Below are positions 5,640 through 12,381 of a stretch of DNA of 64,000 nt, piece by piece. Position numbers and translations under genes: made by a program. Position 1 is the stretch's first letter. Each line of letters starts with the position of its first letter. Location of the stretch: assembly GCF_000374445.1 (NCBI RefSeq), contig NZ_KB894417.1:62001-126000 (forward strand). The letters run 5' to 3'. The notes beneath the pieces were generated by a model. It was not told the origin of the DNA, did not search any database, and was given only the letters and a program-made list of their open reading frames with translations. Source of the DNA: Actinokineospora enzanensis DSM 44649. GTDB taxonomy: Bacteria; Actinomycetota; Actinomycetes; Mycobacteriales; Pseudonocardiaceae.

Positions 5640-5696
5640 CATGCGCCGCACATCCGACTACGCCCAGAGACGGAAGCGGCGGTTGTGCGAGTGCCT

Positions 5697-5719
5697 AGGT
5701 CCCTGCCGCGCGGGGACCT
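5697..5719. promoter_or_regulatory. DevR-type box, everted half-sites (AGGTCCC-N9-GGGACCT)
   Basis: Perfect 7-bp inverted arms separated by 9 bp, 71 bp before the nitroreductase start and about 120 bp before the BON start. The half-site GGGACC resembles the DosR/DevR half-site GGGACT. The same arms and spacing recur at 13057-13079 before the CBS-BON gene. Confidence 0.6.
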
Positions 5720-5789
5720 CCCGCACTGGGGCCCGCCCATCCCGGCCACCACCCTGGACCGAAGAGTTCCCGAGGTGAGGAGGTGCGCC

Positions 5790-6827
5790 ATGGCCGTGTT
5801 GCCGACCGGCGCGGTCTCGGCCCCCGAGGCGGGCTTCCCGGACCGGGACACCCTGCGCACCGCGCTGCGGTTGGCCTGCTGCGCGCCCTCGGTGCACAAC
5901 ACCCAGCCGTGGCGCTGGCTGGTGGCCCCCGACGCCGTGCACCTGTATGCGGACCCGGCGCGGCGGCTGCCCGCGACCGATCCGGAGGGTCGTGACCTGG
6001 TCCTCAGCTGCGGGGCGGCGCTGCACCACCTGGTCGTGGCGCTGGCCGCGTTCGGCTGGACCGCGCGGGTGCGCAGGCTGCCGGACCCGGAGGTGCCCGA
6101 CCACCTGGCCACCGTCACGCTCGCCCCGGCCGCGGCCGACCGGGCCGACGTGGTGCGCGCCGCCGCCATCACGCGCAGGCGGAGCGACCGCCGCGCCTAC
6201 GCCACCTGGCCGATGCGCGACGACCAGCAGGCGGACCTGGTGTCGGCCGCCGCGCACCACGGCGTGGTCGCCCGGGTGATCGAGGGCGAGGCGCGCGCGG
6301 ACCTGGTCCGGCTGGTCGCCGAGGCCGACGCGCGCCAGGCCGCCGACAGCGACTACCGCACCGAGTTGGCGTTGTGGACCGGCAGGCACGCGGGCTCGGC
6401 CGACGGCGTCCCGGCCGCGAACACACCCCGTGAGACCCGTTACGGCGACCTGGTCACCCGCCGTTTCTCCGCGCCCACGCTGGGCGGGCCCGACCGGGCC
6501 ATCGGCACCGGCGCGGGCACCCTGGTGGTACTCGGCACCGCCTCCGACGACCGGATGTCCCGGCTGCGCGCGGGCGAGGCGACCAGCGCGGTCACCCTCG
6601 CGGCCACCGCGGCGCGGATGGTGTCGTGCCCGCTGAGCCAGCCCGTCGAGGTCCGCGCGGCCCGTGACCTGCTGCGCGAGTCGGTGCTGCGCGACGAGCT
6701 GTTCCCGCAGCTGGTGCTGCGCGTCGGCTGGCCCGCCCCGGGCGCGTCGACGCTGCCCGCCACGCCGCGCAGGCCGCTGTCCGAGGTGGTCGGGCTGTCG
6801 GGAACCCCCTCACCGCGACGGGCGTGA
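5790..6827 (+). CDS. Acg-family FMN-binding nitroreductase-like protein
   Basis: The 345-residue protein matches the Acg subgroup of nitroreductase-fold proteins: ALRLACCAPSVHNTQPWRW near the N-terminus and RRRSDRRAYATWPM in the middle. In mycobacteria such proteins (Acg/Rv2032 type) belong to the DosR dormancy regulon; some are thought to sequester FMN rather than act as enzymes. The ATG at 5790 follows a GAGGAGG ribosome-binding site. It is followed directly by a DevR box at 6828 and the devR gene. DevR control is inferred from the box at 5697-5719. Confidence 0.85.
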   Translation: MAVLPTGAVSAPEAGFPDRDTLRTALRLACCAPSVHNTQPWRWLVAPDAVHLYADPARRLPATDPEGRDLVLSCGAALHHLVVALAAFGWTARVRRLPDPEVPDHLATVTLAPAAADRADVVRAAAITRRRSDRRAYATWPMRDDQQADLVSAAAHHGVVARVIEGEARADLVRLVAEADARQAADSDYRTELALWTGRHAGSADGVPAANTPRETRYGDLVTRRFSAPTLGGPDRAIGTGAGTLVVLGTASDDRMSRLRAGEATSAVTLAATAARMVSCPLSQPVEVRAARDLLRESVLRDELFPQLVLRVGWPAPGASTLPATPRRPLSEVVGLSGTPSPRRA

Positions 6828-6841
6828 GGGACCAAAGTCCC
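6828..6841. promoter_or_regulatory. DevR/DosR-type box upstream of devR
   Basis: GGGACCAAAGTCCC is a close match to the core of the mycobacterial DosR box (GGGACTNNNGTCCC type). It starts at the base after the nitroreductase stop codon, 95-108 bp before the devR start. A further half-site, AGGTCCC, is at 6871-6877. Autoregulation of devR is the natural inference. Confidence 0.7.
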
Positions 6842-6935: not shown

Positions 6936-7574
6936 ATGGCCACACGGGTCTTCCTGGTCGACGACCACGAGATCGTCCGTCGGGGTGTCGCCGACCTGCT
7001 GGACGAGCCCGACATCGAGATCGTCGGGGAGGCGGCCTCGGTGTCCGAGGCGCTGGTCCGGGTGCCGAACGCGAACCCGGACGTGGCCGTGCTCGACGTG
7101 CGCCTGCCGGATGGCACCGGGGTCGAACTGTGCCGTGAGCTCCGGTCGGGGATGCCGGGGCTGCGCTGCCTGATGCTGACCTCGTTCGCCGACGACGAGG
7201 CCCTGTTCGAGGCGATCCTCGCGGGCGCGTCCGGGTTCGTCCTCAAGCAGGTCCTGGGCACGGACCTGCTCGCCGCCGTCCGCACCGTCGGCGCGGGCGG
7301 TTCGCTGCTCGACCCCAAGACCACCTCGGCCCTGCTCGACCGCATCCGCCGCGAACACACCCAGACCGACCCGCTGGCCACGCTCACCGACCAGGAGCGC
7401 ACGGTGTTCGACCTGATCGGCGAGGGGCTGACCAACCGGGAGATCGGCGAGCGCATGTTCCTGGCCGAGAAGACGGTGAAGAACTACGTGTCGCATCTGC
7501 TGGCGAAGCTGAAGATGCAGCGCCGCACGCAGGCCGCCGTTCTCGCCGCCGAACTCCGCCGCGGCCAGTCCTGA
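6936..7574 (+). CDS. devR: DevR/DosR-like NarL-family response regulator
   Basis: The 212-residue regulator is collinear with mycobacterial DevR/DosR over its whole length. The receiver domain has acidic residues D9/D10, phospho-acceptor D54 ([10 protein letters not shown]) and the conserved Lys of GFVLKQ. The C-terminal LuxR-type HTH reads [20 protein letters not shown] and [19 protein letters not shown]. In mycobacteria the protein activates dormancy genes under hypoxia, NO or CO. Its likely kinase partner is encoded at 10354-12039 rather than adjacently; a caspase gene on the opposite strand separates them. Confidence 0.92.
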
Positions 7575-7592: not shown

Positions 7593-10049
7593 TCACCCGC
7601 CGACGTACTCGCGGAGTCCGAGTCGCAGCAGTGCGTACGTGATGCGGGACTCGCCCGAGGTGGTGTCCCGGACCCACGTGACGACCGCGTCGAGGGCGCG
7701 GGGGTGGTTGAGCTCGCGGATGGCGGCGATGAGCCTCTTGGCCGCTTTGAGGTCCCGGCCGTCCATCGCCCGGGTCAGCAGGTCGGTGACGACCGGCGGT
7801 GGCGCGACATCGCTCAGGGACGCCACGGTGGTGGCGATGACGCGGTCCGGCTGCGCCGACATCGCCGCCGCGGCGAGCACGGTGTCCAGGTAGACGCGCA
7901 GGTCGCCCTCGCGCAACGTCCCGACCGCGCGCCAACCGTCCGTTGTGGACGATATCCGGGTGAGGATCTCGCGGCGCCGCCTCGGGTCGGCGCGTTCGAT
8001 CAGGATCGGGATGAACTCGGCCCGCTCGGTCATCATGTCCGCCATCAGGGTGCCGAGCCGGGCCGCGACGGCGGGATTGCTCGTGCGCAGCGTGTCCAGC
8101 AGCTCGGCCACCTCGCGTGGCGGTCGCCGCACGGCGCTGTCCAGGACGTGGTCCGCGTGTTCGGCGACCAGGTCGGCCACGGCACGGACGGGGAGTCGCA
8201 GGACGGCGGCCCTGAGCAGGGTGTCCGCGTCGACGGGGCGTCCGGCCTCGCGCAGCGCGGTGACGATCTCCATGGTCGAGTGCGGCCGGTCGAGCACGGT
8301 GTGCAGGCACAGGTCGTAGGCCGTCTGGTCGTGGCGAGAGGAACGCAACTCCGCGGCGAGAGCCAGCGTGCGGGAGATGGGCAGCCGCGTAGGTGAAGAG
8401 TCCAACGCCCGCTGGGCGTCGTCAGGGCGTGTGACGTTCCAGAACTCCCGCGCCACCTCGACCGCCCGGTCCATCCCGTCGACCGTCGCGATCAGGGCGG
8501 CGGCGACCCGATCGGCGCCGCGCGCGTGACCTCCCTCGGACATGACGGCGCACAGTCGCGTGACGGCAGCCACCGGTCGCGTCGCCACCAGCGTGTCGGC
8601 CGCCGCCGCGTAGAGCGTGCAGGCCGACTTGTCGCGGCCCGCGACGCGCAACTCGTCCGCGAACTCGATGACCGCCGGGCCGGGCAGCGTGTTCATCGCC
8701 CGGAGCACCAGCTGGTCGCCCTCCTCGCGCAGGCCGGCGTCGAACAACGTGTTGACCAGGCCGAGGAGTGCCGATCGCTTCCGTGCGGTGTCCATGGCCG
8801 CGTCCAGCAGAGCGGCAAGGTCGGCATGCCGCTGCTGGTCCCGTAGCCGCCGGGCGAGGCGGGCGATGTTCGCCGCGTCCGTGGCACCGGCGGCACGGAG
8901 CAGCGCGGACGCCTCGTCCGCCTGGTTCGTCTCGCGCAGCACGTCCACGATGCGCAGGATCTCAACGCGCGGGCGTGTCGCGGCGGCCGCGTGGACCGCG
9001 CGCAGCTCGGTGTGTCGCGCCGTCCTGCGCAGCAGGTCGACGATGGCCGCGACCTCCTGGTCGGGCCGCCGCCTGGCTGCCATCCTCAACAGCCGGTCGG
9101 CCACGGCACCGGCTCCGGCCGACCGTTGCTCGTCCACCCGCGCGACCAGTTCGCTCGGCGACCACCGGTACAGATCGGGGAACTCCGACGGCGGCCGGGC
9201 GCGTTCGGGCGGCCGCACGACCGGCTTCGCTGCCGCCTGGGCGGTGGCGGCGTCCCGACCTCCATCTCGCCGCCGCACCACGCCCGCCCCCGATCGGTCC
9301 TTCACCGCGACACGCGGTACGGATCGGTTGCGCACCAACGCGATCAGGCTGCCGTCGTTGCGGATCCGCTGTTGCGGTACCGGCCGGTGTTTGGCCCGCA
9401 GGTCGGCGCGCACGTGGCGGAACAGCGTCTCCATGTCCAGGGTCTTGGGGCCGTTCGGGATCCCGTGTCGCATCCGGTGCAACAGCGCGCCGGTGAAGGC
9501 CGTGAACTTCTCCCCCGGTGGCGCCAGTGCCAGCTTCGTCTCCCCGCACGCGGTCATGACGTAGCTGCCCTCGACCGAGGCGCGGTCGGCGAGATCGTCC
9601 GAGCCGCTCATGCCGCCCTGCATGGCCCGCCCGCTGAAACAGCAGTCGAGGATGACGACCTTGCCGAGCACCCGCGGGGCCCCGACGATCTCGCGTCGCA
9701 CGTCGTCGAAGCGGACCGCCCGGTACAGGCGGTCCTTGTCCGCGTCGGGCAACGCGAGGTAGAGGTCGCCGCGGTCGTCGAGCAGGCCGTGCCCGGCGAA
9801 GTAGAACACCAGCAGGTCGGACGCGGCTTCCGCGGCGGCGTGGACCGCGTCCAGCACCTGTGCGGTGGACTCCGGGTCCACGAGGGCCACGCAATGCTCG
9901 TCCGGTAGACCCCACAGGTCGGCATTGGAGAATACGCGACGCAGCTCGCGGACATTGTTGACAACAGAGGGCAGTCGCGCTTGGTTCACATACTCGGACA
10001 CGCCGACGAGGACGGCGCGGGACCGTGCCGGATCGGGAACCCCGGTCAC
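7593..10049 (-). CDS. Caspase-like (peptidase C14) protein with long helical-repeat C-terminus
   Basis: The 818-residue protein has an N-terminal caspase-fold domain (about 1-235) with catalytic His87 in YFAGHG and Cys137 in ILDCCFSG, so the catalytic pair looks intact. A basic, Pro-rich linker (about 250-300) leads to some 500 residues of helical sequence with an approximate 35-residue period (segments such as ILRIVDVLRETNQADEASAL and VIEFADELRVAGRDKSACTL), resembling TPR/PPR-type solenoids, probably a sensor or scaffold. The GTG at 10049 overlaps the stop of a 45-residue ORF (GTGA), implying translational coupling. Longer frames upstream of this GTG carry no conserved sequence. Bacterial caspases often serve in conflict or programmed-death systems; the trigger here is unknown. 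Confidence 0.85.
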   Translation of the reverse strand: MTGVPDPARSRAVLVGVSEYVNQARLPSVVNNVRELRRVFSNADLWGLPDEHCVALVDPESTAQVLDAVHAAAEAASDLLVFYFAGHGLLDDRGDLYLALPDADKDRLYRAVRFDDVRREIVGAPRVLGKVVILDCCFSGRAMQGGMSGSDDLADRASVEGSYVMTACGETKLALAPPGEKFTAFTGALLHRMRHGIPNGPKTLDMETLFRHVRADLRAKHRPVPQQRIRNDGSLIALVRNRSVPRVAVKDRSGAGVVRRRDGGRDAATAQAAAKPVVRPPERARPPSEFPDLYRWSPSELVARVDEQRSAGAGAVADRLLRMAARRRPDQEVAAIVDLLRRTARHTELRAVHAAAATRPRVEILRIVDVLRETNQADEASALLRAAGATDAANIARLARRLRDQQRHADLAALLDAAMDTARKRSALLGLVNTLFDAGLREEGDQLVLRAMNTLPGPAVIEFADELRVAGRDKSACTLYAAAADTLVATRPVAAVTRLCAVMSEGGHARGADRVAAALIATVDGMDRAVEVAREFWNVTRPDDAQRALDSSPTRLPISRTLALAAELRSSRHDQTAYDLCLHTVLDRPHSTMEIVTALREAGRPVDADTLLRAAVLRLPVRAVADLVAEHADHVLDSAVRRPPREVAELLDTLRTSNPAVAARLGTLMADMMTERAEFIPILIERADPRRRREILTRISSTTDGWRAVGTLREGDLRVYLDTVLAAAAMSAQPDRVIATTVASLSDVAPPPVVTDLLTRAMDGRDLKAAKRLIAAIRELNHPRALDAVVTWVRDTTSGESRITYALLRLGLREYVGG

Positions 10050-10183
10050 CGCGGGTCGGTCTCGTCCTCGGGCCGGGTGCGGCTCTCCAGCGCATTTGCC
10101 TCGCGGGCGATGTCCACGTCGTCGTGGAGCCTGCGGTGGAAGCTCCCCGGTCCGAGCCCGTCGCTGTCGACGCCGATCGTCAT
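10046..10183 (-). CDS. 45-residue ORF coupled to the caspase gene
   Basis: An ATG at 10183 behind GGTGGAG opens a 45-codon frame whose TGA overlaps the caspase GTG start by 4 bp. The product is charged and hydrophilic (begins MTIGVDSDGLGPGSFHRRLH), with no signal or membrane segment. The overlap and ribosome-binding site suggest it is a real leader gene or small partner protein. No family is recognised. Confidence 0.6.
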   Translation of the reverse strand: MTIGVDSDGLGPGSFHRRLHDDVDIAREANALESRTRPEDETDPR

Positions 10184-10224
10184 CTCCACCCAAACCTCCG
10201 CGAGCGACGGACCATCCGGCGTCG

Positions 10225-10295
10225 GATACTACCGCCGGACTACTGGCGTCGTGGATACTTTGTCGGAAAGCGGGAACTCGCGTCCGGAAAGTATC
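10225..10295. promoter_or_regulatory. Repeated GATACT motifs upstream of the caspase operon
   Basis: GATACT occurs at 10225-10230 and 10254-10259, and inverted as AGTATC at 10290-10295. The last two form perfect 8-bp arms, GATACTTT (10254-10261) and AAAGTATC (10288-10295). They sit 40-110 bp upstream of the small ORF start, between it and the end of devS, as expected of operator sites. Confidence 0.5.
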
Positions 10296-10353
10296 GAGGC
10301 GCCCGTGTCGGCTTTCGGAATGGAATTTCCGCGAGCCGCCGGGATATGATCGC

Positions 10354-12147
<1,794 letters not shown>

Positions 12148-12381
12148 TTAGGAGCACGCGGTGTCCGTCCCGACCACCGCGACCGGGCAGGGCGCGTGCC
12201 TGATCAGGGCCTGGCCGGTGGAGCCGAGCAGCAGACCGGCGAAGCCGCCGCGGCCGCGCGAGCCGACCACGACGAGCGCGGCGTCGACGGCCTGGCGGCG
12301 ACCCGCCTCGCCGACCGCCCACCGCACGGCGTCCGATGCCGACGCGGACCCGTCGACCGCGACGGCGACCGGCTCGCTCAT
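12148..12381 (-). CDS. Miniature universal stress protein
   Basis: At 77 residues it is about half the usual UspA length (140-150). The first 30 residues match the N-terminal beta1-alpha1 segment ([20 protein letters not shown]), and residues 33-72 match the C-terminal nucleotide-binding end ([29 protein letters not shown]), including the G-x-R-G-x-GG-x-x-x-G-S motif. The middle beta2-beta4 region is missing with the frame kept. Its ATG overlaps the stop of the upstream CBS-BON gene by 4 bp, so the two are cotranslated. It may act only as a homo-oligomer or be a decayed remnant. Confidence 0.8.

What the first reader, a model, noticed from the sequence alone, without database searches (positions are those of the whole stretch)
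7593..10183. Caspase-like protease with solenoid tail and tiny coupled ORF placed between devR and devS
A protease with apparently intact His87/Cys137 and about 500 residues of helical repeats is translationally coupled (GTGA) to a 45-residue ORF and separates a hypoxia sensor kinase from its regulator. This suggests an undescribed death or dormancy effector, with the small ORF as possible inhibitor, activator or substrate, linked to hypoxia signalling.
Basis: partly seen in the sequence, partly recalled or inferred. Interest (0 to 1): 0.75.

Follow-up and report, generated by a model that had tools for sequence, protein, structure and literature searches.

The report
Bacterial caspase beside gutted membrane sensor
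An actinobacterium carries an intact caspase-like protease whose usual small membrane-sensor partner has had its membrane core cut out, leaving a 47-codon stub; the same kind of cut is seen independently in two other bacteria, which questions the idea that the sensor is a constant part of this predicted defence system.

Summary
The sequence observation is right. Window 7593-10049 (-) encodes an intact 818-residue caspase (His87, Cys137) with a ~520-residue alpha-solenoid. It overlaps a small upstream ORF by GTGA and lies between DevR- and DevS-family genes. It is not undescribed: the protease is NCBIfam 'caspase, EACC1-associated type', half of the two-gene EACC1-caspase system predicted by Kaur et al. 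2020. The small ORF (47 codons by homology, not 45) is what remains of the EACC1 gene: its start, first ~31 residues and GTGA overlap match the ~110-residue membrane EACC1 upstream of the four closest full-length homologues; ~62-63 codons holding the transmembrane helix are missing, in frame. In-frame core deletions occur independently in two other genera beside open caspase frames, each with an intact copy in a congener (174 and 294 bp). In four loci of another genus EACC1 is gone altogether. Of 271 caspase loci examined, 216 had a full EACC1 upstream. The devR/devS position is a one-genome insertion into a gap that is 2-150 bp in 8 of 11 relatives; no close DevR-box match precedes the cassette, and its closest relatives sit elsewhere. 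A hypoxia link is unsupported. New variant of a known kind.

The parts
7593..10049 (-). EACC1-type caspase with C-terminal alpha-solenoid, 818 aa, GTG start
   Evidence: (NF047832 235 bits)
9390..10022 (-). caspase domain (residues ~10-220); His87 codon 9789-9791, Cys137 codon 9639-9641
   Evidence: His87 and Cys137 invariant in the 5-sequence alignment
9159..9305 (-). low-confidence linker between protease and solenoid (residues 249-297)
   Evidence: AlphaFold pLDDT mostly under 50; longer than in the four homologues
7605..9158 (-). alpha-solenoid, TPR/PPR-like helical hairpins (residues 298-815)
   Evidence: whole-sequence profile hit to a designed PPR protein E=2.4e-5, no single stretch passing alone; Foldseek TPR proteins such as OGT at low TM-score
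10046..10189 (-). EACC1 remnant, 47 codons, start and N-terminus kept, transmembrane core missing
10046..10049 (-). GTGA stop/start overlap that couples the remnant to the caspase; the same overlap as in 3 of the 4 closest homologues
10190..10353 (-). spacer between the DevS-like stop and the remnant, lower GC (62%), with an 8-bp inverted repeat; no sigma-70-like promoter found
10354..12147 (-). DevS-family sensor kinase (GAF-GAF-HisKA_3-HATPase), host gene, not part of the cassette; start codon uncertain
6936..7574 (+). DevR-family response regulator, convergent with the cassette, host gene
6828..6841 (+). DevR-box-like GGGACCAAAGTCCC upstream of the regulator; the only exact match in the window
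   Evidence: site 93-109 bp before the matched start, at most 1 mismatch, in 11 of 11 relatives

Best explanation
The locus is an EACC1-caspase conflict-system cassette inserted into the short convergent gap between devS and devR. The caspase-solenoid gene is intact; its membrane-sensor partner EACC1 has lost its core by an in-frame deletion of about 62-63 codons, leaving a 47-codon stub that keeps the ribosome-binding site, the start, the N-terminal strand-helix and the GTGA overlap. Shown by sequence: family, stub identity, deletion, insertion, and parallel deletions elsewhere. Inferred mechanism: the stub is kept at least as a translated leader that delivers ribosomes to the caspase start. 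The caspase now works as a soluble protease without membrane sensing. The TPR/PPR-like solenoid is the part that recognises the trigger or recruits the substrate. Activation, probably by induced proximity and possibly by self-cleavage in the linker, cleaves cell proteins and arrests the infected or damaged cell. The DevRS neighbourhood is only where the cassette landed.
For: NF047832 235 bits; catalytic His and Cys present, frame open. All four closest full-length homologues (4 of 389 other family genomes) have an EACC1-like gene directly upstream (two of the four scored against Pfam: PF19953, 50.8 and 49.2 bits), and so do the two named homologues L198 and L200. Stub against those four EACC1s: local scores 58-64, 0 of 20000 shuffles reach them in each of 4 comparisons. 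A subfamily HMM over all window frames ranks the stub first, E=0.0021, the next 4.3, aligned start to start. DNA match of 97 bp at 74%, E=2e-7, followed by a caspase-start block. Length from EACC1 start to caspase start is 140 bp against 326-331; the difference is 186-189 bp against the three homologues with the same GTG start. Parallel in-frame deletions: G184 against G186, 174 bp, and G368 against G371, 294 bp. The stub has no hydrophobic segment (best mean -0.12).
Against: The stub is short and the match to its C-terminal tail is weak; the generic EACC1 HMM does not recognise it, Pfam gives no hit, and a direct genome search with it did not find the four homologous EACC1 genes. No close relative carries an intact copy of this cassette, so the exact breakpoints are unknown. 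Solubility is inferred from crude hydropathy only: the caspase's best segment (1.47) is near the 1.5-1.6 of EACC1 itself, though it is the core strand holding Cys137. No expression, activity or protein data; the solenoid's role and the trigger are inference. A leader role, a functional peptide and a passive remnant are not told apart by sequence.
Confidence: 0.72

Rival explanations
1. The stub is a working soluble mini-EACC1: its N-terminal strand-helix binds the caspase as inhibitor or activator, and removal of the membrane core is an adaptive switch that recurs.
For: Three independent in-frame deletions in three genera keep the N-terminus and the extreme C-terminus (for the window the C-terminal match is weak). 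The caspase-domain comparison G184/G186 shows purifying selection, dN 0.010 and dS 0.174, and the G184 frame stays open with GHG and DCC motifs. All three stubs end at or a few bases beyond the caspase start.
Against: Retained N-terminus varies from ~20 to ~33 residues; in four other loci EACC1 is missing beside a caspase hit, so no part of it is strictly needed everywhere. dN/dS mixes time before and after the deletion.
Confidence: 0.24
2. The whole cassette is decaying: the sensor is broken first and the caspase is on its way to being lost, with no present function.
For: Stub form of this cassette seen in one genome only; one-genome insertion; C-terminal half lacks blocks present in the homologues.
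Against: 818-codon open frame with host-like GC3 of 0.89, catalytic residues kept, 43-45% identity to the four homologues.
Confidence: 0.15
3. One reading: an undescribed death or dormancy effector controlled by DevRS, with the small ORF as dedicated partner.
For: Adjacent to genuine DevR/DevS-family genes and codirectional with the kinase gene; DevR-box-like site before devR.
Against: 0 of 11 relatives with the orthologous pair have the cassette there; nearest DevR-box match before it has 2 mismatches; the four homologues lie elsewhere; the family is described (PMC7159879).
Confidence: 0.05
4. The similarity of the small ORF to EACC1 is chance and the ORF is not a gene.
For: 47 codons; no Pfam or NCBIfam hit; a direct search of 390 family genomes gave its own locus and only weak other matches, best E 0.0036.
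Against: 0 of 20000 shuffles in four tests, right position, right frame, same GTG start, nearby Shine-Dalgarno and GTGA overlap, DNA-level match.
Confidence: 0.03

Closest known systems
EACC1-caspase two-gene system ('System 4', Kaur et al. 2020, PMC7159879)
   Same: 5' EACC1-derived gene overlapping a 3' gene with N-terminal EACC1-type caspase and a variable C-terminus (superstructure-forming repeats are among those listed there)
   Different: EACC1 reduced to 47 codons without the transmembrane helix
Full-length homologues in four genomes of another genus (G085, G090, G103, G153; loci L093-L096)
   Same: Caspase plus solenoid, 43-45% identical; in 3 of 4 the same GTGA overlap; 4 of 4 have an upstream gene starting VELTI
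   Different: Intact ~110-residue EACC1; contexts without DevR/DevS in the 18 kb examined
In-frame core-deleted EACC1 in G184 (174 bp) and G368 (294 bp)
   Same: N-terminus and C-terminal end kept, transmembrane core gone, caspase frame open
   Different: Different genera, different deletions; the G368 caspase was seen only as a family hit and an open frame, not read
Paracaspase MALT1 (PDB 6f7i) and TPR superhelices such as OGT (1w3b)
   Same: Foldseek resemblance of protease and solenoid
   Different: Fold-level likeness only (TM-scores about 0.4 by target length or lower); no claim of membership
DevR/DevS two-component system
   Same: Both flanking genes belong to it; a His aligns with the DevS heme ligand (H149, label and place recalled)
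   Different: Neighbour only; the cassette is not part of it

Membership tests
EACC1-caspase conflict system | N-terminal caspase of the EACC1-associated type | tested here: met
   NF047832 235 bits, cutoff 140
EACC1-caspase conflict system | Catalytic His and Cys | tested here: met
   His87, Cys137, invariant
EACC1-caspase conflict system | 5' gene of the EACC1 family next to the caspase | tested here: met
   Homologous stub, 0 of 20000 shuffles in 4 tests, DNA match; present only as a remnant
EACC1-caspase conflict system | EACC1 with a transmembrane helix | tested here: not met
   Best 19-residue Kyte-Doolittle mean -0.12 against 1.5-1.6 in two homologues; helix region absent
EACC1-caspase conflict system | Variable C-terminal module | tested here: met
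   Solenoid shared with few relatives: 4 of 389 other family genomes at E<=1e-8
EACC1-caspase conflict system | Action against invaders, activation by autoproteolysis | not testable with these tools
PF19953 EACC1 (the small ORF as a complete member) | Match above the Pfam cut-off over the domain | tested here: not met
   No Pfam hit; it is a fragment, not a full member
DevR regulon | DevR box upstream of the gene | tested here: not met
   Only exact match at 6828 before devR; before the stub the best site has 2 mismatches
DevRS locus (conserved member) | Recurs between devR and devS | tested here: not met
   0 of 11 relatives
PADLOC-listed caspase defence systems | Strong match to a listed model | tested here: inconclusive
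   Partial match only, E=4e-4, residues 13-103

The most novel reading that the evidence does not exclude
EACC1 is not a constant component: bacteria repeatedly and in frame cut out its membrane core, turning a membrane-gated caspase system into a soluble one in which a short EACC1-derived peptide (about 40-60 residues) still regulates a caspase that senses through its own C-terminal module.
Probability: 0.24. Interest if true: 0.65.

Novelty: new variant of a known kind. Interest (0 to 1): 0.42.

Why it matters
In the papers found here the EACC1-caspase system is a prediction, and its model rests on EACC1 being a constant membrane sensor that activates the caspase. Natural in-frame deletions that remove just the membrane core, with an intact copy in a congener for comparison in two genera, are ready-made experiments on that model: they separate membrane sensing, translational coupling and caspase contact. 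They also explain short coupled ORFs that look like new genes but are the ends of known ones.

Tried and rejected
Direct search for the 47-residue ORF in 390 family genomes: 78 had a match at E<=0.1, the own locus at 3e-27 and the best other at 0.0036; most lie inside much longer open frames, their contexts were not checked, and the four homologous EACC1 genes were not among them; not used as evidence. A search of 390 genomes with the whole caspase failed on the machine side; the solenoid part was searched instead. The caspase query of script one search was in a wrong frame (stops); only its kinase and regulator hits are used, and one search repeated the caspase search in the right frame on L128-L136 and L093-L096. 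For L108 and L109 absence rests on the 2-bp gap. Phages: no relative at E<=1e-5. Plasmids: 21 of 72,556 records carry a relative of the caspase domain, none full length, so no proof of mobility. Base composition does not mark the caspase as foreign (GC 72.1% against 71.2% for the window). No promoter- or terminator-like site by consensus scan. Mini-ORFs in L326 and L383 looked like still shorter EACC1 stubs; L326 was not significant (491 of 3000 shuffles) and L383 got no shuffle test and no two-block DNA support; both left out. L314 (G368) was also not significant by that protein test (170 of 3000) but was then shown by DNA comparison with L320 (G371) to be a 294-bp in-frame deletion. L280 lost the EACC1 N-terminus rather than its core, and L310 keeps only an EACC1-like C-terminus; neither is counted as a parallel. 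The gap scan also flagged L173, L305, L371 and L417, which have a full EACC1, and did not flag the window itself at its E limit; one search did. Searches gave partial survey tallies; one search is the merged count.

Limits of the survey: 280 upstream regions (30 of the 36 genus matches, the window among them; 111 rows; 50 of the 80 loci; 85; the 4 closest homologues), best scoring first, not a random sample. Dropped before the count: 8 duplicates and L166, whose contig ends too soon. 'Full' means a match over more than 60 positions, E<0.01, to a home-made HMM of 11 EACC1 sequences, three of them from the closest homologues. EACC1 genes elsewhere than directly upstream were not looked for.

Full report
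What is there. On the minus strand, 7593-10049 is an open frame of 818 codons starting GTG. Its N-terminus is a caspase: NCBIfam NF047832 'caspase, EACC1-associated type', 235 bits against a cutoff of 140, and Pfam Peptidase_C14, 63.7 bits. His87 and Cys137 are in the expected motifs and are invariant across five homologues. AlphaFold (8 sequences, mean pLDDT 73, pTM 0.43) gives a caspase fold for residues 1-240, a low-confidence linker at about 249-297 and then helices to residue 815. The solenoid is TPR/PPR-like: a profile of five homologues hits a designed PPR protein at whole-sequence E=2.4e-5, with no single stretch passing alone, and Foldseek returns TPR superhelices for the solenoid and MALT1 paracaspase for the protease (low TM-scores, fold-level only). 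Upstream is a 47-codon ORF, 10046-10189, whose TGA overlaps the caspase GTG as GTGA.

The neighbours. 6936-7574 (+) is a DevR-family regulator (PDB 3c3w, E=2.4e-82). 10354-12147 (-) is a DevS-family kinase with GAF-GAF-HisKA_3-HATPase; the position of the DevS heme histidine (H149, label and place recalled) is a histidine in the alignment. A DevR-box-like GGGACCAAAGTCCC lies at 6828-6841, and a site with at most one mismatch lies 93-109 bp before the matched start of the orthologous regulator in 11 of 11 relatives, 4 of them exact (the pattern itself is recalled). Before the small ORF the best site has two mismatches.

The position is an insertion. Eleven relatives of the genus with an orthologous kinase-regulator pair were compared. 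In 8 the genes are convergent with 2-150 bp between their stops. One (G007) has 1,141 bp with another ORF, 271 residues and probably a membrane protein by eye; in G002 and G008 the two genes lie on the same strand. The caspase lies between them in none of the 11 (for two of them this rests on the 2-bp gap). In the window the two stops lie 2.78 kb apart and the cassette fills the gap. Among 15 other genomes of the genus none shows the full-length caspase; the best match is 53% identical over the caspase domain alone.

What the small ORF is. Only 4 of 389 other family genomes have a homologue of the solenoid half at E<=1e-8, all in one other genus; the whole proteins are 43-45% identical to the window's. 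Directly upstream of all four is a gene of 109-112 codons beginning GTG (VELTI...), preceded by a purine-rich ribosome-binding site. Two of the four were scored and are Pfam EACC1 (50.8 and 49.2 bits). In three the overlap with the caspase is the same GTGA. The window ORF begins VEMTI and aligns without a gap over at least its first 31 residues. The local scores (58-64) were reached by 0 of 20,000 shuffles in each of four comparisons. A subfamily HMM run over all window frames ranks this frame first at E=0.0021, the next at 4.3. At the DNA level two blocks match, 97 bp at 74% (E=2e-7) around the start and 61 bp at 77% (E=1e-4) around the caspase start. Start-to-start distance is 140 bp against 326, 329 and 329 bp in the three homologues with a GTG caspase start, so 186-189 bp are missing, a multiple of three. 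The lost part holds the transmembrane helix (best hydropathy mean 1.5-1.6 in two homologues, -0.12 in the stub). The caspase's own best segment reaches 1.47 but is the core strand with Cys137, so I do not count it as a membrane segment; this is a judgement, not a test. The generic EACC1 HMM and Pfam do not see the stub, which is why annotation would miss it.

It is seen elsewhere. In G184, against G186 of the same genus, the EACC1 gene has lost exactly 174 bp in frame, taking the GELG motif and the helix, while the caspase beside it keeps 497 codons, GHG and DCC motifs, and dN 0.010 / dS 0.174 over the caspase domain. In G368, against G371 of the same genus, 294 bp are gone in frame, leaving VNLEISITGVDASGKLRALRTF plus the C-terminal GTPRLEGRVDD; its caspase was seen as a family hit over 210 of 211 positions in a 686-codon frame without stops. 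The three cases belong to three genera by handle (g1, g13, g36). In four further loci, all of one genus (L170, L176, L189, L196), EACC1 is missing by comparison with L284. Of 271 distinct caspase loci examined, a generic HMM found a full EACC1 directly upstream in 216, a partial one in 2 (G184, and L280 which lacks the N-terminus) and none in 53, the window and G368 being among the 53. The sample is best-scoring first, not random.

How it most likely works. Kaur et al. (PMC7159879; passages read, not the whole text) propose that EACC1 is a membrane-associated sensor that activates the caspase, which then frees its C-terminal module by autoproteolysis. At this locus the EACC1 membrane helix is gone. 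What survives is what translation needs: ribosome-binding site, start, frame and overlap. I therefore take the stub to be at least a coupling leader (inferred), the caspase to be a soluble protease (inferred from sequence), and the solenoid to provide recognition (inferred). Whether the stub also acts as a peptide cannot be told here; the variable length kept in the three cases and the losses elsewhere speak against a strict need.

What is not supported. The hypoxia link rests on position alone, and the position was found in this genome only. The four closest relatives have no DevR or DevS gene within the 18 kb examined and lie in two other contexts.

Literature. Searches for EACC1 with caspase, for the full name and for caspase with DosR/DevR terms (listing only) found two papers that name EACC1 in the library; in the passages read I saw no mention of shortened EACC1. 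Subscription papers are not held, so absence from print is not established.

Organism.

Noticed in passing
L129 6892-8032 (G007): Another relative has a different 1,141-bp insert with a 271-residue ORF, probably a membrane protein, in the same convergent devR-devS gap, so this slot takes insertions more than once.
   Followed up: partly
L118/L126 (G000:C50:18943-20705): The genome carries a second devS-like kinase copy, 77-81% identical, split over two frames with stops, so it looks broken.
   Followed up: no
10254-10295: Perfect 8-bp inverted repeat GATACTTT / AAAGTATC in the AT-richer spacer before the EACC1 stub, a possible operator or chance.
   Followed up: partly
L170, L176, L189, L196 compared with L284: EACC1 absent beside an EACC1-type caspase; in L189 the preceding frame ends about where the caspase begins.
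   Followed up: partly
L329, L330, and G368:C1:2432671-2442383: EACC1-type caspases occur in tandem or in clusters; the core deletions in G184 and G368 lie in such multi-copy clusters.
   Followed up: no
L093-L096: In the four full-length homologues the gene downstream of the caspase is convergent, its stop within about 50 bp, as in the window.
   Followed up: partly
plasmid hits: 21 of 72,556 plasmid records (Streptomyces, Embleya, Rhodococcus, Kitasatospora) carry a relative of the caspase domain.
   Followed up: no
5685-6827 (+) and 12148-12381 (-): The devRS flanks carry a 380-codon frame with relatives beside the regulator in several congeners (not family-scanned) and a universal-stress-protein fragment (PF00582), contents that recall DevR-regulon genes (recalled).
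   Followed up: no
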